From positions 3,668,152 through 3,732,151 of the forward strand of contig OY783218.1 of NCBI GenBank assembly GCA_963678705.1: a stretch of DNA of 64,000 bases, read 5' to 3'. The notes beneath the pieces were generated by a model. It did no database searches. It was not told where the DNA came from and worked only from the letters and a program-made list of their open reading frames with translations. Below, in pieces: positions 34,401-58,400 of this stretch (position 1 is the stretch's first letter; every line of letters begins with the position of its first letter). A program made the position numbers and the translations under genes. The stretch is from Panorpa germanica. Taxonomy: Eukaryota; Arthropoda; Insecta; Mecoptera; Panorpidae.

Positions 34401-37400
34401 TTTTTTGTTCCTTTTTAGTTGGTTTTAATTGAACGTCCTCGATCTTTTCCTTTTCTATTTGCTTAGTAAGACGCTCGGTTTTCTTTAGCTTAATTTCTTG
34501 TTCAGTCCAAGGAACAGTTTTGGGACCTTCTTCTGATCTATCTCTAGATGGACGACGAATTTGTGCTATTTTCGTTGTTGTACGACGACGCCATGGAAGT
34601 GATTCATCACCTTTACGTACGATTAGTTCTTCCTCATCTGTTACTTCTGAACCTGATACCTTACCCGTTGGAAATGATTTTTGCTTATCCTTTTTTTGAA
34701 TTGTTTTTTGTTCGTCATGGGTTTCTGTTTCATCTGTTTCTTCGGTTTCATCACTTACAGTTGTTTTTGTTTTTCTTGTAATACGTCCTGTAATTTAAAT
34801 AATCCCTTCGTACCAGAAACTTTTTTACCTTTGTGACATGAAACACTTATCAACACAGTACACGGGGTAAGGAATTGGAACACACACTCATTACTTTTAA
34901 ATATTTGTTTTAAACCTCGTGTAAAATATATGTGACCTTCTTTCATTAATGTAAACTTTTCAGTTTGTAATGTACATAATTCGTTTCTTCAATTAGGTTA
35001 ATAAATAATTGTTACGACAAAAGATGGAGTAGTTTGTAGATTATTTAAACTGTTAATTTTAATCTATACTAATATTATAAAGCGACAGAGTTTGTTTGTT
35101 TGAACGCGCTAATCTCCGAAACTACTGGTTCGAATTGAATAATTCTTTTTGTGTTGGATAGTCCAGTTATCGAGGAAGGCTATAGGCTATATAACATCAC
35201 GCTACGACTAATAGGAGCAAAGATATAGTGGTAAATGTGTAAAAAACGGGAGAAATATTATAAAGCACAATCGAGTAGTCATTCGATACGTGATAGACGT
35301 GTTTTGTTTGTTTCCTTAAAATAATTTAATTGAACTAATATTATTAAATATACATATATATAAATTAATTAAAAAGTAAATTTAAATTTAAAGTAAAATT
35401 GCATTATCTAAAATATTATTATTTTAATATTCAAATTTTCTGAATTTAAAAAATGAATTTGAATTCTGAGGGGAAAGTGGGAGTTGACCCCAATATAAAT
35501 TTATACAATGAAGATAATTTAACTTTATCTTCTTATAAAATTATGATTCAGAAAGAAGATATTCTAAATGAAAAATATGGGATCAGTACATTAAAAACAG
35601 CAAAAATGCTATATAATTCAGAATATGGAAAAGATATTACAGAAATAAAGAAAATAGGGAAAAATAGAATAATGGCGGTATGTAAAAATCCTAAATCAGC
35701 TAATATGTTAGTGAAATTAAATAACAAGAAAACATCAGGAGTTGATATGTTTATACCAATGTTTTGGATTACAAGAATTGGAATTATCAAAAATGTAGAT
35801 ATTGAATTTTCGGAGGAAGAATTAAAAGAAAACATTTATAGTGACCCGTATAAAATCCACTCCATAAGGAGATTAAAAAGGAGAGTGAAAGTTGAAGATG
35901 AAATTAAATATGAGGACTCTAGAAATATTATCATTTTCTTTGAAGGCCAAAATTTACCTCAATATATTTATATTTGGAATGCTAAATTACCCTGTGAACC
36001 ATTTATTAAAAATACGAGACAATGTTATAAATGTTTAAGATTTAACCATACGGCCAATCAATGTAAAGGAAAGAGTAGATGTAGCAAATGTGGTTCAAAT
36101 GAACATACGCTAAATTTATGTAAAAATGAAATTATAAAATGTGTAAATTGTGATGAAGAACATGATGCGACTGATAAAAATTGCAAAGAAAGAAAAAGGC
36201 AACAAGAAATAAAAATTTTAATGGGAAACAGAAATCTTAGTTATCAAGAAGCCGCTATTGAAATACCTCAAATTTGGAAAGACAAAAATTCGTATGCTGT
36301 AACTACAAAAAATAGATTTGATATATTATCTAATTATGAAAAGGACTTTCCTCAAAATTTAACAAGTCGTGAAAATAGTATACCATCATATAAGCCAGCA
36401 CCCATTAGAAAAAGAACATATTTAGATAGAAACTGTAAAAAGGAAAATATTAAAAAACAAAATAATATAAATGATAATAAAATTGAAACTAAACAGAATG
36501 AGAAAGAACAAAGTTTCATTAATTATATTACAAATTCTACACCTAGAACTTATAATACAAGGAACAATTACAGAAAAAATGAACAAGATAATGACGAGGA
36601 ACAAACAGAAAATAATTCTCAGAGGTCCATAAAAGTACCAAAAATTCAATCCAACTCTAAATTATTAGTATCACAAAATTTTAGTGAAAATAAAAATGAA
36701 AGAAATAAATTCATGACGGATTCAAATAAATTTTCTATATTTGAAAATATAGAAAGAGGAAGAAAAAATAGCGAAATTATAAAAATAATATAATATAAGA
36801 GCATACATATTAGAGTAACATATAAAATTATAATTATTAAATAGCGTCTATTCGTAAATAAGGTTTCTAGAAATTGATATTATACAGTGGAACGGACGGA
36901 AATTAATTAGTGAAATATTAAAATATTTATAAATTTGTAAAATTAAATTATAAATTATAAAAGATGTATTTAAAAAAGATTGTTGGTGGCTATGACGAAA
37001 GAAAGTCAAGGCAAATAAGTGAATAAATATAAAAAAAAAATATTATAAAGCGACAGAGTTTGTTTGTTTGAACGCGCTAATCTCCGAAACTACTGGTTCG
37101 AATTGAATAATTCTTTTTGTGTTGGATAGTCCAGTTATCGAGGAAGGCTATAGGCTATATAACATCACGCTACGACCAATAGGAGCAAAGATATAGTGGT
37201 AAATGTGTAAAAAACGGGAGAAATTATTTCATCTTTGAAGCCTTCCGTTGCGTGCGCCGTGAAAACGGTTCAAGATACACAAAAAATATGTATTAAAGAA
37301 TAATAGCTCTTTTAATGATCTAAAAAACAGTCCGCGATAGTATATGTCTATCTTTTAAGATTAACTCACAAAAACCGTTTTTATGGTATTTCAACAAAAA

Positions 37401-40400
37401 ACTTTAAAGATTACAATGATAAATAACTCCCAAACAAAACCACCTCGCTCTCTGCGCTGGCCGGCGCGGCGGGAGAAAGGCGGTGCTTGCGGGCAAGCCG
37501 GGAGGGGGGTGTAGCTCAACGAGATACCATGCCGCGCGGGTCACTCGCGCGGTCGGCTCCCTACTGAACGGTTGAATGCAGCGCTAATTTGTTTATGCGA
37601 TATAATTATCATCGTAATATTACTTTTTAAACACAGTTTCATTTTGTAGTTGTTTTCTATATAGTAGGTACTTTATTTGTTTTAGGATAGTATTTAGTTA
37701 CACAATAATAACACTTTTTTGTTTTTATGTAGATTATCTTAATATATATAAATTACGTGTCACTGTGTTGTCCGCTATGGACTCCTAAACTACTTAACCG
37801 ATTTTAATGAAATTTGTACACCGTGTGCAGTTTGACCCAACTTGAAAGATAGGATAGCTTACATCTCAATTTATTTATCTTATTGCTAATTATTTGTCTA
37901 TTAATTATCTGTATATGACATATGACATCGGGCGACGATGATGGCGACATCTGTTGACTAGATTGAGTAAATATTCTGTTGAGTAAATCGAAATCTGTTG
38001 ACTAGATTGAGTAAATATTCAATAGATGGCGCTATGTAATGTAATATGACAAAAACGTTAGTCACAGCAACGCGTGGCCGGGACAGCTAGTCTGTTAATA
38101 ACCGGTTATCCCTTTTGCAGTACTTATAATAATAATAATTTCATCGCTGAAAATAACATACACCCTTATAATAAGGCACTTAGAAACTATATTTAGCAGT
38201 ACTTTACAAATGAATTATATTATATTCTATAACAATCTTAAGAAATAGAGAAGTAAAATTATCAACAATTTCTTTTTAATTTTGAAATAATTGGGTTGGG
38301 AGCATGTCTTAATTTCTGTAAAACTGTAGTCTAAATTAATAAAGTTGGCTACAAAAATAAAATTACTATTTTATAATGGTTCGCAATATTACAGAAGATA
38401 TTAATAATTAAAGCAATGTTTGCCTCTCCAATTTTTACAAGTTATGAAAAAGGAAGGTGAAGCTTTTATATCGTAGCCGTGCCTACGCTCAACCCCCAAA
38501 TATTACCCAACTCCCCCCAAATATTGCCCAAAAAAGCTCAACCCCCCCAAATATTACCCAAAAAAGAGAAATTGTAATGTTGGCAATTCTTATGGAGCGT
38601 TCACAGTTCCGCATTGCTCGTATTTCTTTTATTAAATAATACTTGGAAGAGAAGAGAAAAATGATGGAAAGCGTATGCAAAAATAGCTATGGTTCTTAGT
38701 GTTATCTGCAAGGTTTAGTCATACAAATGTTGCACCCTTGCAAGGTATAGCAATCTAAGTTTTTAGGACAGTAGACCTGTAGCAACCGCTACAGACGTAC
38801 GCCTGTGATACGTTAAGACGTATCACAGGCCACTGAGAAATATAGGTGTCAGCAGTCATAATATGGCGACTAAAAATTAAAGGGGCATGGCTAAATTTCA
38901 AATTTAAATATCAATATTTAAAAAAAATTTAAAACCATTCTGATAAATATAGATCAATAGAGCCAGATGCTGATCACAACCCAATTGCCCGAAATGAATA
39001 TTTTTAATAATTAAAGATTGAATCGAAGAGAAGATATTAAGACTACTAGCCAAGAGCGATGACGTCATACATCTTTCGAACTAGCGCTATATTGTCTGAT
39101 GAGAGATATAGTATATAAGGCATCGATTGCTAATATAAGAAAAGAAAAAATATAATTAAGTGTAAAAATGTGTTAGAGCATTTCGAAATTCATCTTTAAT
39201 ATCCATAAAGAAAGATTGAAATAATTTTAAAATAGAAAATAATGTTAGACCAACCCTAATAATAGAAATTGAAAATAGAATAACAATATGCATGGGTTGT
39301 CTAATACAATCATAGTTTATTTATAACCAATGATTAGTCTCGAATAAATATGGTTGTGTGAGTCACTAGGTCATTAACCTTGCCATTCAATTTAAATAAA
39401 ATTACGGTAATAATATAAAATAGGAAGCCTTATTAATAAGCATAAGCCATACTACTCGCACTGACGCAACCAACATTCTAACAATACGCTAACTTCAAAC
39501 GTCTAATATTAACTTGTGAATACTGCTTTACATGAGTCAGAGTATTTGACGAGAGAGTTGATGACGTCACACGTTGATGAAGACACTCCCCCTCCAACCT
39601 CCTCAGATCTTAGGAGCTGGAAAGTCAACACTCAACGTTTCAACAGCACTAATGGACCCATTATTGTACCTGACCGCGAACCGAATGGTTCTGTTCGCTC
39701 GTTGATAGTGAGGTGAAAAAGTGTAGTTTTCATTTTTAAATATTTGTGGTTTAATGAAGTGGATTAGAAAAGGTGTACTAACAAAGGTGTGGGTGGAAAC
39801 ATATAAACGAACACAGTGTTTTAGTGGAATAGTTTGATATTAGTGAAAAAAACAATGTACAAAATGACAGTTCATATATAAACAATTTTAAATGCATAAC
39901 GGCCGCGTTAAGTTTGATTGATTGGAAATTAGTTTCTCTAATTTATATTTTGTGTGGTTTTTTTACATTTTTTTTGTTATTTCATAAATTAATTTCCAAA
40001 ATCAAAGTTATCGCGGCCGTTATTAGACAGTATATAATGTAACAAGATTTCAAATATTTTTGTTTTTTGAAAGTTAGATTAGAATTTATCGTTTCTCCAT
40101 TTGATAACTGATTGGTAGAGTTCATTCAATTTTTTTGTTTTTATTCAATAATTTGTAAATATAATTTTGTAAAATAACGGTAAAAGTTATCTATTTATTA
40201 ATTTAAGTTACAGCTCGTTACATTCACGAGTGCATAGCGTTACAATATCTATTCACCTGAGCAGAACAGGTAAACTAGTTCAAGTTTAAAATTAACCGAA
40301 AGTAGAACACAAATGCACTGGCACTAGCAGCGGTGACCATTTTATAAGTTGACCGCGATTTCAACACGATTTCTCCACTTGCATAAAACTACTATATACC

Positions 40401-46400: not shown

Positions 46401-49400
46401 TGAAGTACGTCTGCTTATCTTATTCACAGAGTTCTTTTCATCGTTTAACGTTGGAATTAAAAACTACTGTAGATTATAGGGCTGTTCTCACACTAGAAGG
46501 TGTAGAAGCACTTTATCATAAGAAAAAGATTGTACTTTAATGTTTATCAATACATCGCTATGTTGAAAGAGATAAACATTAAAGAAAAAGTTTGAACAGT
46601 CGATAAACGAACGTAGTCTGTTTCAGTGTGAGAGAGCCTAAAACATCACGTGAAATCTTCGTGGCAATATTTATTTGTATAGAGAGAAGTGATAGTCAAG
46701 ATCCAGGACATTCCACCAAATATCAGCCATAGTAACATAATTCATGCTAATTTATAAACTTAAAAAATAATTAGTAATTAAAATCAATGGAAATATTTTA
46801 ACAAAGCTCACGTACAGTATTGTGGAAAACCAGAACTCAAAATTAGTATAAAAACAGTTAAATAAAAATAAAGTTGAGTCCTGGTTGAAACATCAATATT
46901 GATCATTTATTTCATACCTGAAAAAACGCACTTTTTGTAAAGCAAATGAAAAACGCACTGATTTTCAAAGTCGCAGTAGCTAAGTCTCTTTCCGGTAGGC
47001 TGACTCCACTATTGAAGCGAGGTTTTTTGGAAGGGTTTGTTTTAAAAAGGGATACGGATTATGGGATGTTTCTCGCTAAGTGGCATAGGCAGTTTGTGCA
47101 GTGCAGTGTCAGTGATTAATGCGTGTGCGAATGTGCGAATGTGTTAAGTGCGTATAGTTCTTTTTAAATAATTTATTTATGTATGGTACGAGTAATTTGT
47201 GAACTTAATGATCTGCATACAACTATGTAATGTTTTTCTCTGCGTTTTATGAATAATTTTTCAGCGTTTATTTATAGTATAATATTGTAAAAATGTCATT
47301 GTCATAAATAAACTAGTATGTAAAGTGTTTGAAGCAATTGTTGTGGTAGTTTTATACACTTACGTCTAGGTGAGTTTTTGAGAACACCGCGGTAGTCATC
47401 GTGTCTTGGAATGACTTTAAGTTCAGTGGATGCTAAAGCTTCTCCAACAGAGCTGCGAGCAATTACTTCAACGGTTCCTGTATCGTATTGACGAGTTTTT
47501 GGAATATCCATGTGGTACATGCCATCGTAAGTCAGCTTGTAACGAGATCCCTGATCAAAAATAATTTGTGAAATAAAACAATTAAGTTTGTCTAAGTTAA
47601 TTTGAGGGTTAGAAAAACTTACATTAACGACTGTATGTCCGTTTACAAGCCACATAACCCTAGGTCTTGGGTGGCCAGTAACACGACAACAGAATCGCGC
47701 CCATTCGCCTTCTTCGACAGTGCAAGGTTCAGGTTTGCTTACAAAGATGGGAGCAGTACGAGGTTTGGAGTCCTCATCAGGTTCTTCGGGAACACTGGTA
47801 AAGAAATGAAACAAGTTAGTACTTGCACACCAACAATATCGAACAATCGTTATGTTTCAGGAGGTGATACTTACACTTGCCAAGCTGCTTCCATCTCCCT
47901 AATCCTTTCAATACTCTTCATATGTTTTGGTAATTGGGAATCGTAAATAATTCCAGGCTTTCCAGCGGTTTTAATAATAGCACGAGTTTCATCCATGCCA
48001 TACAAGTTAGTAGCGCGGCAAAGATATTCTCCGCTATCTTCGGGATACACCCAACCGAAATTCATGGCGACGTAGCCAAAATCATAAATAGGTGTGAATC
48101 GATTCTCTGTAATAGGCACATTATTAAAATTTGAAAATACATCCTAATGATAAAACGGGAAAAGTAATAAACGTACTGTAGGGTAATGGTTTTCCGTTCA
48201 AGAACCATTCAACCTTCATGTTGGGGTCACCAACTGGAGCCAATTGACATTCAAACTTAGTGGACTGCATTTCAACCAATGTTGTTTGATCTTTAATTTG
48301 TGTCACAAATCGTGGAGGTTGTTTCCTATCGGGATCGTATAAATCATCTTCAGTTAAGAAGATTTCAGATGTGTATTTCTTAATTGTAGCTTCCATCTGC
48401 ATGAGAGTTTCAGATTTCTTCATGCCCTTTGGAACTTGGTTTTGTAGAATAATCGATGGAAGTTCTGAAATGAAAATATATTGAGTTAGTAACAGTGTAA
48501 TCAAAATATTGTTAATGTTATAACGTAGTAAATATATTTACTTTTGCAAGAAATAGAAGCCCTGGTTGTATCTTCACCAAGATCGTTAACAGCCCGGCAA
48601 ACGTATTCGCCGGAATCTTCAGAGTACACGTACAGAATATCCAAGGACACGTAACCCATGTCGTAGACAGTGCGGTACCTGTGTCCAGAAGGCAACAGTT
48701 TTCCATTTCTGTACCATTCAATACGAAGTTTAGGATCTTCCTTAGGTTCAACGCGACATTCAAACCTTACTGCCTCAGCTTCATCAACTGTAGCAGATTG
48801 AATCTGTGTAATGAATCTTGGTGGAGACATTGGAGCATCTTCTTTGTGAGCTTCTGTAATTGGACCTCTCTCCAATTCTTTCAATTTCTCACCAGACATT
48901 CCTTGTGGAAGCTGTGATTCCAAAACAATATCTTTCTTAGATTTGCATGTTATTTTGGCTGTTGTTGTAGCAGAGCCCCATTTATTAACAGCCCTGCAAA
49001 CGTACTCTCCAGAATCTCTTGCATAAATATAGTCCATATCTAATGCAATGAATCCGAAATCGTTCAGCATGTGCACACGGGATCCGGTAGCGAATGGCCG
49101 GGAATTATGGAACCAATCAATGCGTAGTGTTGGATCACCAACCGGTTCAACTTTGCAGTCAAAGTGAATGGGACCGCCCTCAGGTACGTCCAAAACGTCT
49201 TTGAGCTCAACAATAAATCTTGGTGGATTTGGCTTTTCTTCATCAGGTAGAATTTCATCTTTCTTGTACAGGGATTCTTCCAATTTTTGAATACTTTCAG
49301 TACCGGAACGGAAGTTAGATGGTAGCTGAGGTTCAAGGACAATTCCTTGACGACCACGTACTTGCAGTTTGCATGACACCGTAGCCTCGCCGTGCTTATT

Positions 49401-52400
49401 AATTGCTTTGCAGGTATATAAACCTGAATCACGTTGATAGCATCCAGCAACTTCAAGAATAACGAATCCGAAATCGTTGATGGTTTTGATACGGGATCCT
49501 TGTGTAAGAGGTTTTCCATTGTGATACCAACTTACACGCATGCTGGAATCGTTGACTGGAATAAGCCTGCATTCAAAGTGTGCTAAAGAGTTCTCACCCA
49601 GCAACAGATCTGAAGGAGTTGTAATAAACTCTGGTGGTTTTCCGCTGTCATCATCTGGGGTAAGCTGGCTTGGTACATTACCAAGTCCTTCAAGTTCTGC
49701 AATTTTATCAATTGTTCCTTCCATTCCCTTTGGTAATTGTGATTCAAGGATAATGCTACGCTTTCCTTGTACTTTCATGCTTGCTGTTGTTACTGCTTCA
49801 CCGTAATCGTTAAAGGCACGGCAAGAATATTCACCAGAATCCTCAGGATATACTGGAGAGATTTCGAGAATTACGAAACCAAAATCGCAGAAAGTTCGGA
49901 AGCGGGATCCTGTTTTCAATGGTTTGGAGTTCCAGAACCACTCAACCTAGAAATATCAATAAAATAAACTTAGTAACAAATAGTATAATTGCCGATATAA
50001 ATTATACTACGCTTAATATCGTACCTTGAGTTTCGGATCGTCTGTTGGAATGAGCCTAGCCTCAAAGTGAGCACTTTCTCCTTCGCGTAATGAATCGATA
50101 TTAGACAGTGGAACTGTAAATACTGGTGCTTTTCCTTTCTCCTCGGTGGTTCTTTCATCTCGTGTACGAATATGTGAGTCTTCCAAAGTTTGAATTTTTT
50201 CCAAACCTCCTTCCATGCCCTTAAATTTTAATAAAACAATTAATAAACCTAATAATATGTATATTTACCATAATATTTAGAAATATTGAACATCTTACCC
50301 GCGGGAGTTGCGAGTCCAGGATCAAATTAGCCTTCGACAAACATTTCAGAGTAGCTTTAGTAGAATCTTCACCATATTTATTAACAGCTCTACATTCATA
50401 AACTCCAGAATTTTCTTCGTAACAATACAAAATGTCTAAAATGACAATTCCAAAGTCGTGGAACGTGCGGTACCGATGTCCATGTGGCAATTTCTTTCCA
50501 TTGTAATACCACTGTACGGTTAGATCAGGGTCTGTAACTGGAGTTAAACGAGCTTCGAAGTGAGCACTTTGTCCTTCTACCAATTTAGTTACATCAGATA
50601 TTTGTGTAATAAATTTAGGTGGTTCGGTAACAGGAGTTGAAGGTGCTTGTTGTTGTTGTCCCTGTAGGCCTTCCAATTCACGGATTTTAGCCAAAGAATC
50701 GGGTTGAAGGCTGTCCAAATATACGCCACCCTTTCCGAAACATTGAATAGTTGCGCGAGTTGTATCTTCACCATATTTGTTGGTAGCTCTGCATACATAC
50801 TCTCCAGAATCATGATTTTGAGTATATGAGATGTCCATCAACACAAAACCGAAATCAGATACAGGCTTGATGCGAGTAGAATGCCGAATGGGTCTGCCAT
50901 TGTGGAACCATTCAACTTTCATAGTGGGGTCACCTACTGGTATTAAGGTGCATTCGAAGTGAGCAGATCCACCATCCTTCAATCCAACAATATTTTGAAT
51001 CTGTGTGGTGAACTTGGGCTTTTGCCCAGATGATTTGTCAACGCATTCCAATTCAACGCTGATTTCTGCTCTACCCCATTTGTTCGTAGCTCTGCATGAA
51101 TAGGTGCCGCTATCTTCAATCTTTGTTCCAAGTACTTCCAAAACCACCATGCCAAAGGCATAAACTGTTCTGAATCTATGACTAGCATCAAGTGTTTTAC
51201 CGTTGTAGAACCATTCTACCTTCATTGTTTGATCTCCGGTTGGCGTTAGAGATGCCTCAAAGTGAGCGATTTCACCCTCAGATACATTTCTAAGACTAGT
51301 AAATTCAGATGTGAATACTGGGGCATGCCCATCTTCCGCATCTGGAGCACCGGCTTCTTTGGGTCGTAGAGATTCTTCAAGATCTTGAATTTTCTCCAAT
51401 CCTTCGGTTCCTTTGGGATGTTGTGTGCGTTCAATCAAATTATCCTTTGATGTGCAGTAAATTGTGGTTGACGTAAATGCTTCACCAGACTTGTTGTAGG
51501 CTCTGCATGTATAAATTCCTTGATCACGTTCATAAACTTCAGTTAAATCAAGCGTTACGAATCCAAAGTCACTTGTTATTTTAAACCGAGACCCATGCTC
51601 TAGTACTTTGCCGTTTAACAACCATTCAATCTTAAGTTCTGGGTCAGTTTTAGGTTCTACTTGACCTTCCAAATGTAGTGGTTCGGCTTCAGAGAGTTTA
51701 AATTCGGGTTTAAATGGCACAACCCAGATTGGTTTAGAGAAGTCTGTTTCGGGTTTGGATGTTTGACGATTGTATCTGTTAGCTAGTTCCTGTTCAGTTT
51801 CTTGAACAGCTTCCAAACCAGCCTTACCTTGAGGATGCTGAGTATTGAGATAAATATTTATATCTCCAGTACATCTGAGAGATCCTGAAGTTGTAGCTGA
51901 TCCCTTGCTGTTTGTAGCTTTGCACGTGTAAATTCCAGAATCTTCTTCGTAAGAGTGATTAAGATCAAGAGCAACGTATCCAAAATCATAGGTAGACTTG
52001 TAACGAGCGCCACTTGGTAATGGTTTTCCATTTAGGAACCACTCGATCTTCATGGTGGGGTCCTTTGACGGTTCGACGTTACATTCAAAGTGAACATTGT
52101 CACCTTCCTTACACTCTACATTGTTCAAATGAGTAATGAATACTGGAGTATCGAATACTGCATCTGGGGCATCTGGTTTGCGTTCAGCGGGTTGCTCCAA
52201 AGCACTGATAATAGGTAAGGCATCTGGATGTAAAGTATCTCCCAACAGCCAATGACGATCTGCAATTTTCAATGTGCATGTCGACACTGCTTCACCAAGT
52301 AAGTTGGTAGCTTTGCAGGTATAAATTGCAGAGTCATCATCTCTCAAACCATTGACTGCAAGAGTGACTAAACCAAAGTCAAATGTACTACGGATGCGTG

Positions 52401-55400
52401 TACCTGTAGTTAGAGAAATTCCATTCTTAAACCATTCTATGCGAAGATTTGGATCAGCTCTGGGTTCAACTTGGGCTTCCAAGTGAACATGTTGACCTTC
52501 TACGAGCTTATCGTGACTTTGAAGATGAGTTGTAAATACTGGAGCTTGTTGTGGTGTTGTATCGACAAACATTTCTGGAACACGGTTCATTGCAGCTTCC
52601 TTCAGCTGAATCTTCTGCCATGCTTCGGGCATAAGTGGTTCTCCAGCAATAGAAGCGCGGGATTTTACCTTTGTTGTTGTAGATGATACAGCTTCCCCAG
52701 CGTTATTAATAGCTTTGCACATATAAATTCCAGAATCAGCGGATACCACTGAGTTGATGTCTAATGTCACAAAACCGAAGTCGTGTGTGGTGCGGAAACG
52801 TGAGCCTAAATCAAAAATTTAATTAAGCCATAGGTTCTGAATGTTAAACTTAATAAATTGTGTATACAAACTTACCCATTTTTAATTCAACTCCATTCAT
52901 GTACCATTCAAAACGTAGACTTGGATCTCCAACAGGAACAACTCGGGCCTCGTAATGGGCATGCTGTCCTTCCCAGAGTTCTGATGGACCTGTTAAGAGT
53001 TGAGTGAATATTGGTTTCTCAAAAGCACGCTCTGGTTCTTCTGGTCTAGCTGCTGTAGGTTGTTCCAACTGTTGAATCTTTCTCATTCCTTCTGGATGTT
53101 GAGTATCAAGCTGAATACTGGCCTTGGCTATATAAATATAAATATATTAGTATATTATAACAAGAAATTCATCATTACATTTAATACAGTGTTAAAACCT
53201 ACTTCTAATTCTCATAGAAGCTGTGGTAACAGCTTCGCCGAGTGGATTGGATGCTCTACACATGTAGACTCCTGCATCTTCGTCTCTGACATGAGTAATA
53301 TCCATAGATACAAAACCGAAGTCATGAGTTTTAGTGATTCTCGAGCTGTCCTCAAGAGGCTTTTCGTTCCTGAACCATTCTACTTTAAGGGTAGGATCTC
53401 CTACTGGGATCAACCTACATTCAAAGTGAGCGGTTTGACCTTCTGCAATAGAATCAATATTTTGAAGCGGTTGTGTAAATACTGGTCGTTGTCTTGTAAC
53501 TGGATCAGCAACTTCTGGTCTCTTGAATGGAGTTTGTTCCTCCAATTTTCTAATCTTATCTAATCCTTCAGGACGTTGAGATTCGAGAATAATGCTTCCC
53601 TTTGCTGTAACGCGCAAGTTAATGGAAGAAGTACATTGTCCTAAAGCGTTGATTGCTTTAACAGAATATTCTCCGGCATCCTCGGGTACAACATGTTGAA
53701 TATCTAATGCAACATAACCAAAATCGAATGTGATATGGAAACGAGATGCTGATGGTAATGGCTTTCCATTGTGGAAGAATTCAATTCTGAGGTTGGGATC
53801 ATGGATAGGTTCAACTTGACATTCAAAGTGTGCAGTTTGGCCTTCCATTAAGTCAGTAGTTCCACGAAGATCTGTTACAAGTCTGGGTGGAGTAATAACT
53901 GGCTCTTCAACTTCAAGACGAGCTGGTCTGCCTTGTGCTTCTAATTCACGGATCTTCTCTAAACCATCAGGATGTTGAGACTCAAAGATAATACTCCTGC
54001 GGTTGGTTGCCTTAATGGTGCATGTGTTAACAGCTTCTCCAAGCAAATTAGTTGCTTTGCACATGTAGGTACCAGTGTCTTCTCCATAGGTATACAATAT
54101 ATCCAGTGCAACATAACCGAAATCATGAGTTGTTCTGAATCTGTGACCGGCACGAATTGCCTTTCCATTGATGAACCATTCAATCTTAAGATTAGGATCG
54201 TTGATGGGTTCAACGCGGCATTCCAAATGAGCATGATCACCTTCCTTAAGATTTTCAAGACTTGTGAGAGCTGTAAGGAATACGGGACGTTGTCCTTGTG
54301 GTTCAATTTCAGCTTTCTGTGGGCGTTCGAAGTTCTCAAGGTCACGGATCTTTTTGAGTCTTTGTTCATCCAAAGTATCGAGATATAAACCAGCTTTAGC
54401 TAAAAATTACAATCATTTTTTTTAAAACAATTTTAACTTAAGTAAAAATATTCTTACATTATAAATAATAAAATTAAAAATACCTGCAACATTGACGGCA
54501 CAGGTAGTGACGGCTTCTCCAACTGCATTTCTTGCTTTACACATGTAGGTTCCAGAATCTTCGGCGTATGCGTACAGAATATCCAACGCAACAAATCCAA
54601 AGTCGTAAGTGGTTTTGAACCTATGCCCTTGAGGAATTGGACGACCATTGCAGAACCATTCAACACGCATTGTTGGATCGTTGACTGGAGTCAAAGTTGC
54701 TTCAAGATGAACGCTGACACCTTCAGCGATATCTGCATTACGTAGGGGTCTGCCAAACTGAGGCTTCTCAGCAACGTAATGTTCATCAGCGGGCATGCGC
54801 TTATAACGGGAATCGTCTTCAAGGTATTGAATCTTTTGCAGGGCTCCCTCATGTTGTGTGTCACGGATAATAGAAGCTCTCGCTATAAATATTAATTTAA
54901 AATTAATTAAAGATTTTCTGGACAGAGAACTTAGCTTTGACAAAATACTTACTTTGAACGTTCAATTTAATAGAAGATTGAGCAGTGCCAAGCAGATTGG
55001 TTGCTCTGCAGGTGTATTCTCCGGTATCTTCTCCATAGACAGTCAAAACATCAAGAGCAGCAAATCCGAAATCATAAGTAGTACGGAATCTATGACCATT
55101 TTGAAGTGGTTTACCGTTGAAGAACCATTCGACTTTAAGATTTGGATCAGGGTATGGTTCAATGCGACATTCGTAATGAGCACTTTGACCTTCGACGAGG
55201 TTGGTAGGTCCGTTTAATTGAGTAGTGAAGCGTGGTGCTTGTTTTACCACGATTTCCTCTTCCTCACGACGACGATAACGAGATGAATCTTCAAGTTGAT
55301 GAATCTTTTGCAGGGCACCCTCGTGTTGACTTTCCAATTGCAGTGATGCCTTAGCTATAAAAATTTATTTAGAATGTTAAAAATATTTTTCTATTTAAGT

Positions 55401-58400
55401 TTAAATTTTTACGTAATCCGCTGATATACATACATTGAACAATCATTTGTGCTGAGGTCACTGCTTGACCTAATTCATTAATAGCACGGCAAGTGTAAGT
55501 ACCAGAATCCTCTGGGTTAACATACTTCATGTTAAGAGCAACGTATCCAAAGTCGTGCATGGTAGTCAAACGATTTGCTAAAAGAAAGAATATTCTGTTA
55601 ATGATAATTAAAATAACTTTTAAATCATTGAGTATTTGTTTGTACACTTACAAGCTTCGATAGGAACTCCATTTCTTAACCATTCTACGCGCAACTTAGG
55701 ATCTCCTACTGGAATAAGGCGTGCTTCAAAGTGAGCGGCTTGGTTTTCAGCAACTCTCAAGTCTCTAACGGGCATTGTAAATACCGGAGCTTGCGTAACA
55801 GTTTCTTCTTGTACGGATTGTCTCTGGTACCTAGAAGAATCTTCCAAATGAGTTAGGCGAGTCAAAGCTCCTTCGTGTTGTGATTCGAGATAGATTGATT
55901 TCTTGGAGTGAATTATAGCAATTCCAGATGTAACAGCTTCTCCAATCGCATTAAGAGCTCTGCAGGTGTAAGTGCCACTATCTTCAGGCATGCATGCCAT
56001 TATGTCTAATGCGACAAAACCAAAGTTATTTGTTTCAGTAAAACGAGATCCAGATTTAACAGGTGTGTTGTTGTGATACCATTCAACTCTCATCGTGGGA
56101 TCGGATACTGGAATCAATCGACATTCGAAATGAGCTCTTTGTCCTTCCTTAATTTCGACGTTCTTAATAGATGTAGTAAAGGTTGGAGCTTGATTTGTTG
56201 TTTCTTCTGTAATTTCTGATCGTTGATATTTAGAACGATCTTCCAAATAATGGATTTGTTCTAATCCTGCTTCATTTTGAGTACCAGTTTGGATGGTAGC
56301 AGTTCCACGGCAACCTAAGTTGCAGGTTGTTTCATCGGCGCCGACCAAGTTAACAGCGCGGCATGTGTAAATTCCAGAATCTTCTGCGATAAGATCGACA
56401 ATATCTAAAGCTACGTAACCAAAGTCATGGATTGGTCTGAAGCGATGTCCAACAGTAACGGGACGACCATTCTTAAACCATTCTACTCTCAAGTTCGAAT
56501 CGGTAACTGGCTCTAACTTACATTCAAAGTGAGCATGTTGGCCTTCGCGCATGTTCTCCAAACTCTTTGGTTTTGTAACAAATCGGGGTTTTACATTAAT
56601 AGACTCTTCCATGTATTCAGTTTTCTTATATCTGGAAGCATCTTCGAGGTATTGAATCTTTTCAAGCCCAGATGGATGCTGTGATTCTAAGAGTAAATCT
56701 TTCTTAGCAATCACACGGACAGAGCAGGATGTTACAGCTTCTCCTAATTGGTTTCTTGCTTGGCAAGTGTATACTCCCGAGTCAACGGGGTAAACACTGA
56801 GCAAATCAAGCGCAACATAGTCAAAGTCATAAGCTGGTCTGAAACGATGACCAGTTTTAACTGGACGGCCATTAACAAACCAATCAATTTTCATAGTTGG
56901 GTCGCCAACTGGCTGAAGTCGGCATTCCATGTGAACATTTGTTCCTTCAATGGTTTCAATGTTATGCAGAGCTCTGGTAAACTGTGGTGCTTGCATGACA
57001 GTTATATCTTCGTTGATAGTACGACGCTGTCTGGAAGCATCTTCGAGCTGCTGGATTTGTTCCAAGGAGAGTTCATTTTGTGTTTCAGTGTCAATGTCGC
57101 TACGTCCAATAACGCGTACGCACGCTGAAGTATGAGCGGAACCTAAATGGTTTGTAGCGCGAACTGTGTATTCACCAGAGTCTAAAGATGTCGCGTGAAC
57201 AATATCTAAGGCTACAAACCCAAAGTCATAGTATGTCCTGAACCTGGAGCCTACAGTGATTGGACGTCCATTTTGGAACCATTCGACGCGCATTGTTGGG
57301 TCACCCATTGGCTCCAAGCGACATTCCAAATGAATATTTTTACCTTCTCCTACCGGCTTTGGGTCCGACAAAGGTTGTACAAAGATTGGCTTAGATTTAG
57401 AAATCTCTTCAATCTGATATTGAGGCTCAATGAATTTGGAATCTTCCATGCGTTGAGTCTTTTCGTATGTTCCACGATGCATACTGGATGTATCAATTGT
57501 AGCACGTGCTAGAATAAATTAATATATTTTAATGTTTATATCCGTATTTATTATACTTACTGTGCTTTTAAACTTTTACCAATGTTACTTACTTTCAACA
57601 ATCATTGTATTAGACAATTGTGCTTCGCCTAGCGAATTCCTGGCGATCACGGTGTAAGTGCCGGCATCTTCTGCTCGAACACTAACAATATCCAACGCAA
57701 CATATCCAAAGTCATGGTAAGTTTGAATCCTGTTGGCTGGCATTAATGGTCTTCCATTGTGCAACCATTCAATTTTCATGCTTAGATCACTTTGTGGTTC
57801 AACGCGTGCTTCAAAGTGAGCTCTTTGTAATTCCACAATTTTTGTGGTTCCTTTAAGTGGTCCAAGGAAACGAGGTTTCTGAGTAATAGATTGTTCTTCT
57901 TGTGAAGTCTTTGAATATCTGCTGGAGTCTTCCAGATATTGGATTTTTTCTAAACCACTTGGATGTTGAGAGTCAACAATAATGTCTTTCTTGCTTACAA
58001 CACTCATATTAGCCGCAGTAGTGACTTGTCCGGCAGCGTTGTAGGCCCGGCAAGTGTATACGCCAACGTCGTGAATAGTTACGTACTTAATTGTCAAGGC
58101 TACGTAACCGAAATTAAAGAATGTTGTTATGCGGGAGCTTGCCTCGACGGGTCGGCCATCCTTGAGCCATTCCACACGAAGGGTGGAATCACCGATCGGT
58201 TCGAGACGAGCTTCAAAATGTGCGAATCCTCCTTCGCGAATATTGTGCTGATCTTTGATGGGGGTCTTAAACACTGGAGGAGTAGTGCTTTCCTGAGCTT
58301 CTTGTACGTATTTAGATTGCTGGAATTGTTGATAGGCTTCCAGTTCTTCAACTTTCTCAATGTATCTTTGCTGCTCTGGAATTCCTAAATCGGAAGTAAC

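What the first reader, a model, noticed from the sequence alone, without database searches (positions are those of the whole stretch)
35063..38090. ORF1-only LINE with a 185-base target duplication
The LINE has an intact Gag-like ORF1, a 3' end and an A-tail but no reverse transcriptase, like mammalian HAL1 elements. It is flanked by a 185-base direct repeat with one mismatch, and the interrupted Helitron reads through when one copy is removed. LINE target duplications are usually below about 20 bases, so this is very long. The near-identity says the insertion is young and ORF1 may still be selected or recently active.
Basis: partly seen in the sequence, partly recalled or inferred. Interest (0 to 1): 0.75.

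Follow-up and report, generated by a model that had tools for sequence, protein, structure and literature searches.

The report
Gag-only LINE carried by a Helitron

Summary
The repeat, ORF and LINE tail are there, and the LINE belongs to a young family without reverse transcriptase: of 20 copies picked by ORF1 protein alone, none is directly followed by ORF2 (17 end in the same short 3' region, 3 run into Helitron DNA). The "185-base target duplication" is wrong. The LINE has an ordinary 12-13 nt duplication (AATATTATAAAGC) nested in a 183-nt tandem repeat of the Helitron's 5' end. That tandem repeat also occurs without the LINE, in other Helitron copies: 46 junction matches at 40 scored places; 7 of 7 fetched from the matching register fit the predicted empty site at 150 of 151 bases. 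32 of 41 best-scoring copies share the 5' flank because Helitron ends (A|TC...CTAG|T) carried LINE plus repeat to new sites; 26 copies are solo, 18 with clear 11-16 nt duplications. RT-bearing relatives exist: X (ORF1 41-43% identical; RT, RNase H) and Z (ORF1 38% identical; 74 ORF1 matches; endonuclease ORF downstream in 3 of 3 read), possible enzyme sources. It resembles HAL1/HeT-A-like gag-only LINEs, spread partly as Helitron cargo.

The parts
35063..38090 (+). Helitron unit with LINE cargo: A|TC at 5' end, CTAG|T at 3' end
   Evidence: 28 unit copies with this start listed (window included), all preceded by A; the CTAG end was found in 26 of 28, all followed by T
35063..35256 (+). Helitron 5' end (194 nt), first unit of a tandem duplication of period 183
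   Evidence: single unit in 10 of 10 LINE-less Helitrons among 20 fetched; tandem without LINE at 40 scored places; period
35254..35266 (+). left 12-13 nt LINE target-site duplication AATATTATAAAGC (start of the second tandem unit)
   Evidence: the best 40 scored copies keep these 13 nt before the LINE
35267..37039 (+). ORF1-only LINE, ACAATCGAG...GTGAATAAATA(A)n
   Evidence: about the same ends in solo copies at other sites
35453..36793 (+). ORF1 (446 aa here, 440 aa in most copies), gag-like
   Evidence: related to ORF1 of LINEs X and Z
36023..36184 (+). three CCHC-type zinc knuckles (CX2CX4HX4C twice, CX2CX3HX6C)
   Evidence: read by eye from the translation; cysteines and histidines aligned in X ORF1. 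Pfam gave no hit above cut-off
36794..37030 (+). LINE 3' region; may hold a remnant of the ORF2 start (IDIIQWN)
   Evidence: suggestive only
37039..37051 (+). right LINE target-site duplication (its first A is shared with the A-tail)
37225..38090 (+). Helitron body and 3' end
   Evidence: 40 scored copies at 99-100% identity

Best explanation
An ORF1-only (gag-only), non-autonomous LINE retrotransposed, using the reverse transcriptase of a related full-length LINE, into a non-autonomous Helitron whose 5' end already carried a 183-nt tandem duplication. The insertion went near the start of the second repeat unit and made an ordinary 12-13 nt target-site duplication. Rolling-circle transposition of that Helitron then copied LINE plus both repeat units to many sites, while the LINE also inserted by itself elsewhere. 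Shown: copies without ORF2, the nested short duplication, the LINE-free tandem duplication, the Helitron ends and the many sites. Inferred: the order of events, that a Z- or X-type LINE supplied the enzyme, and that the Helitron was moved by an autonomous Helitron's Rep/helicase.
For: (a) 32 of 41 LINE copies have the same 5' flank, and 30 of these 32 run straight into the second repeat unit on the 3' side; 28 unit copies sit between A and T at different sites (the 3' side was seen in 26). (b) 26 solo copies examined; 18 have clear duplications of 11-16 nt. (c) LINE-free tandem duplications: L085; 46 junction matches over 150-151 of 151 query bases at 40 scored places; 7 of 7 fetched matching-register places agree with the joined window flanks at 150 of 151 bases, and 6 of 6 others carry the duplication with one extra base at the joint. 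(d) 0 of 20 copies picked by ORF1 alone directly followed by ORF2. By coordinates, 1 of 96 window-type ORF1 matches has an X-type RNase H match within 7.5 kb downstream (the composite on C14, explained), against 13 of the 14 best X ORF1 matches (using 52 of the 154 RNase H matches). (e) RT-bearing relatives with homologous ORF1: X and Z.
Against: 10 of 10 LINE-less Helitrons fetched first had a single 5' unit; three further bodies (C2:12244189, C1:15313611, C1:4662038) adjoin LINE-free duplications, but single-unit forms are common. 'Duplication first' rests on paralogous empty sites; exact loss of the LINE between its 12-nt duplications could mimic them but would have to recur. The window register and the +1 register show that the duplication arose, or changed, more than once. 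RT donor not proven: Z RT was not read, and by eye the LINE and X share only a short A-rich 3' end. 8 of 26 solo copies gave no clear duplication. Searches score only the best 40-150 candidates, so counts are lower bounds and favour young copies.
Confidence: 0.92

Rival explanations
1. One reading: one target-primed insertion with a 185-base target-site duplication.
For: 186-nt repeats flank the LINE; 10 of 10 LINE-less Helitrons fetched first have one unit; no copy joining Helitron nt 1-21 directly to the LINE among 40 scored.
Against: A 12-13 nt duplication sits between left repeat and LINE; 18 solo copies have 11-16 nt duplications; the same tandem duplication exists without the LINE at 40 scored places, 7 of 7 fetched matching-register places fit the empty site at 150/151.
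Confidence: 0.02
2. The LINE inserted first with a short duplication, and the 183-nt duplication arose afterwards by template switching (AAT microhomology) or unequal exchange; LINE-free tandem forms arose separately.
For: AAT stands on both sides of the joint; two registers of the joint exist, so such duplications arise more than once.
Against: The matching-register joint without LINE is the same to the base in 7 of 7 fetched; no simple [Helitron 1-21][LINE] copy among 40 scored.
Confidence: 0.05
3. Not a non-autonomous family but deletions of an ORF1+ORF2 LINE with the same ORF1 that still exists in the genome.
For: The C14 locus first looked like ORF1, Helitron, then ORF2; 36 of the 96 ORF1 matches were not read (counts); a possible ORF2 remnant in the 3' region fits descent from a full-length LINE.
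Against: The C14 locus is a composite Helitron inserted whole into LINE X; 0 of 20 copies picked by ORF1 alone have ORF2 directly after ORF1; by coordinates no other of the 96 has an X-type RNase H match downstream.
Confidence: 0.04

Closest known systems
HAL1 (half-L1) elements of mammals
   Same: LINE derivative that encodes only ORF1p and arose several times (passage seen in PMC5753468; the primary paper is not held)
   Different: ORF1 here is a CCHC gag-like protein related to X/Z, not to L1; other host group; here also amplified inside a Helitron
HeT-A of Drosophila telomeres
   Same: gag-only LINE beside RT-bearing relatives (PMC6114517 passages: TART and TAHRE encode RTs likely critical for HeT-A; that HeT-A itself lacks RT is recalled)
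   Different: dispersed with short target-site duplications in the copies seen, not telomeric arrays
Lepidopteran non-autonomous Helitrons (silkworm families, Lep1)
   Same: TC/CTRR ends, A|T sites, bursts, captured DNA (PMC3789558 passages; PMC4038834 passages)
   Different: cargo is a whole, ORF-bearing LINE; 5' end sometimes in tandem
Tandem/composite rolling-circle elements
   Same: tandem arrays, composite transposition, and a LINE retrotransposing into a Helitron as one possible capture route are discussed (PMC4067079 passages)
   Different: here composite forms and LINE-free forms are both read in one genome

Membership tests
gag-only / half-LINE (HAL1-like, HeT-A-like) | intact ORF1 in many copies | tested here: met
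   33 of 41 copies open to at least 440 aa; 85 of 96 scored ORF1 matches without an internal stop (best-scored copies only)
gag-only / half-LINE (HAL1-like, HeT-A-like) | no ORF2 in the family | tested here: met
   0 of 20 picked by ORF1 alone and 0 of 41 picked with the whole element; 36 of 96 ORF1 matches not read
gag-only / half-LINE (HAL1-like, HeT-A-like) | RT-bearing LINE with related ORF1 in the same genome | tested here: met
   [not shown]
L1-derived HAL1 proper | ORF1 of L1 type | tested here: not met
   no L1 ORF1 model hit at E 1 or below; homologous to X/Z ORF1 with CCHC knuckles
LINE (target-primed insertion) | variable-site insertions, A-tail, short TSD | tested here: met
   26 solo sites; 18 clear TSDs of 11-16 nt, 1 ambiguous, 2 weak, 5 not found
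Helitron | TC...CTRR ends, insertion between A and T, no TSD | tested here: met
   28 of 28 preceded by A; 26 of 26 with a found 3' end followed by T
Helitron | Rep/helicase, or an autonomous partner | not tested
   no other ORF of 100 aa or more in the unit; no search for a partner was made
LINE with 185-base TSD | repeat single in LINE-free copies | tested here: not met
   single in 10 of 10 fetched first, but in tandem without LINE at 40 scored places

The most novel reading that the evidence does not exclude
A half-LINE that lives by two copy routes at once: target-primed insertion in trans and rolling-circle spread as Helitron cargo, with Helitron-borne copies serving as new transcription sources and ORF1 suppliers, so that one sequence feeds both solo and embedded copies (among 41 copies no column with a minority letter in three or more copies separates the two sets). 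Its ORF1 lineage (38-43% identical to the ORF1s of X and Z) may have been kept by selection without ORF2 for a long time.
Probability: 0.2. Interest if true: 0.6.

Novelty: new member of a known kind. Interest (0 to 1): 0.42.

Why it matters
It removes a would-be record target-site duplication and shows how one is mimicked: an older tandem repeat, a nested ordinary duplication, and copying of the whole by a second transposon. It also gives a natural system (solo copies, Helitron-borne copies, LINE-free Helitrons, RT-bearing relatives in one genome) for asking why some LINE lineages keep ORF1 after losing ORF2.
Full report
What was checked. The window is C15:3668152-3732151 of an unnamed 464-Mb genome in 249 contigs. 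The direct repeat (35071-35256 and 37039-37224, 186 nt, one mismatch), the ORF (35453-36793) and an A-tail are present. The region lies between minus-strand open frames with Ig domains and long repeats, probably an intron of a sallimus/titin-like gene (inference).

A family without ORF2. Searching the own genome with 35257-37039 gave 41 matches at 99-100% identity, one of them partial. Their flanks were read. This query favours ORF2-less copies, so a second test used the ORF1 protein alone: 96 scored matches at 98-100% identity, 11 with an internal stop; 40 of these lie in the 41 copies already read. For 20 others the 800 nt downstream were fetched: 17 continue into the same 3' region and A-tail, 3 (L067, L078, L085) run into Helitron sequence, 0 directly into ORF2; 36 of the 96 were not read. 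By coordinates 1 of 96 has an X-type RNase H match within 7.5 kb downstream (C14, see below), against 13 of the 14 best X ORF1 matches (52 of the 154 RNase H matches were used). Of the 41 copies, 33 keep an open frame of 440 aa or more and 8 are shortened. An older 3' fragment (95.8% over 523 nt, spanning the ORF1/3'-region joint) lies in L012.

Two classes of flank. 32 of 41 have the Helitron on the 5' side, and 30 of these run straight into the second repeat unit on the 3' side (exceptions L009 and the partial copy in L019); 9 are solo. 28 unit copies are listed with the start TCTATACTAATATTATAAAGC (up to 2 substitutions), all after an A at different sites; the CTAG end was found in 26, all before a T (L031 was flagged 'noLINE' there although one search shows its LINE, because its LINE start did not match the motif exactly). 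With the 17 there are 26 solo sites. TSDs: 18 clear (11-16 nt; upper values may include shared A or T), 1 ambiguous in a TA run (L077), 2 weak (6-7 nt) and 5 not found; in the weak and missing ones the 63 nt fetched did not show the LINE start.

What the 185-base repeat is. In the Helitron-borne copies ATTATAAAGC stands between the left repeat and the LINE; with the bases before it, AATATTATAAAGC equals Helitron nt 9-21 and recurs right after the A-tail. That is the LINE's own 12-13 nt TSD. The best 40 scored copies keep these 13 nt before the LINE and none of them continues to Helitron nt 1. Leaving out LINE and one TSD gives a head-to-tail duplication of period 183. Prediction: Helitrons with this duplication but no LINE. 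L085 then showed the duplication without a LINE at the joint, two substitutions from the predicted 28-nt joint. A search with L085 across the joint gave 46 matches over 150-151 of 151 bases (95-100% identity) at 40 scored places; six places carry two such joints in a row. Three further bodies adjoin such places. Thirteen joints were fetched: 7 of 7 of the same register match the joined window flanks at 150 of 151 bases, the one difference being the T/C that also separates the window's two repeats; 6 of 6 others have one extra base at the joint. An allele of this very site was not available and, since the unit moved as a whole, would be expected to lack the whole unit.

Age and selection. Copies differ from the commonest letters by a mean of 0.21% (32 Helitron-borne) and 0.13% (9 solo). 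Only four columns have a minority letter or gap in three or more copies, and none separates the two classes. In Helitron-borne copies coding changes are 66 nonsynonymous, 23 synonymous, 6 stop, close to the 0.716/0.239/0.045 expected without selection (transitions weighted 3; shared changes counted once per copy). Solo counts (6, 4, 1) are too few. So the burst is young and copies drift after landing.

RT-bearing relatives. One unit copy (L027) sits in the 3' region of a LINE with RT (PF00078, E 4.5e-13) and RNase H (PF00075, E 2.4e-9). Its relatives, family X, include 4 copies with an open frame of 1242 aa over the RNase H part. The X copy on C1 has an ORF1 43% identical over 311 aa to the window's (tblastn, E 6e-81; 41% over 394 aligned codons), followed by the start of ORF2; in another X copy an endonuclease domain was matched (L119; PF03372, E 7.8e-7). 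Searching with X ORF1 gave 97 matches: 23 of X type (22 places, 70-100% identical) and 74 at 48-50% identity with nearly equal scores, 72 of them with an open frame of 486 aa: family Z. One Z copy was read: ORF1 38% identical to the window's, 48% to X; in 3 of 3 Z copies read the same ORF2 start follows, in L123 with an endonuclease domain (PF14529, E 1.3e-20). Z's RT and 3' end were not read. Z, numerous and uniform, is my first choice for the enzyme source; this is inference. The C14 locus, which looked like window-type ORF1 joined to ORF2, is a composite Helitron (Helitron 5' end, LINE nt 1-1533, second Helitron with the tandem duplication) inserted whole into an X copy. L019 on C47 and L121/L078 on C17 show the same kind of composite.

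Mechanism. Shown by sequence: short-TSD insertion of an ORF1-only LINE into a Helitron with a tandem 5' end; spread of the composite between A and T. Inferred: the order of events from paralogous LINE-free copies; trans use of a related LINE's RT; movement of the Helitron by an unseen autonomous partner. Known parallels, all from passages: HAL1 encodes only ORF1p and arose several times in mammals (PMC5753468); [quoted passage not shown] silkworm Helitrons expand in bursts and capture fragments (PMC3789558); tandem and composite rolling-circle transposition and a LINE retrotransposing into a Helitron are discussed in PMC4067079.

Verdict. A real and tidy case, but of known kinds put together; the record-long target duplication is not real. 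The clade name of X/Z (Jockey/I-like by CCHC ORF1 and RNase H) and the host order (probably a moth or butterfly) are recalled or inferred and were not tested.

Noticed in passing
1243-21255 (- strand): A single open frame of 6670 aa, near open frames with Ig domains at 48501-58598: probably the PEVK-like part of a sallimus/titin-like gene with a 20-kb repetitive exon (inference).
   Followed up: partly
L085 and the 40 places (G000): Helitron 5' ends in tandem, period 183-184, two or three units, in two registers differing by one base at the joint.
   Followed up: partly
L019 (C47), L120/L085/L119 (C14), L121/L078 (C17): Composite Helitrons: 5' end of one Helitron, LINE nt 1-1533, then a second Helitron inserted in the LINE; on C14 the composite lies whole inside a LINE X copy.
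   Followed up: yes
[not shown]
   Followed up: partly
L045 and L068 flanks: Two solo LINEs sit at the same position of another repeat whose two copies differ by eye more than the LINEs do, so the site may have been hit twice (letters).
   Followed up: no
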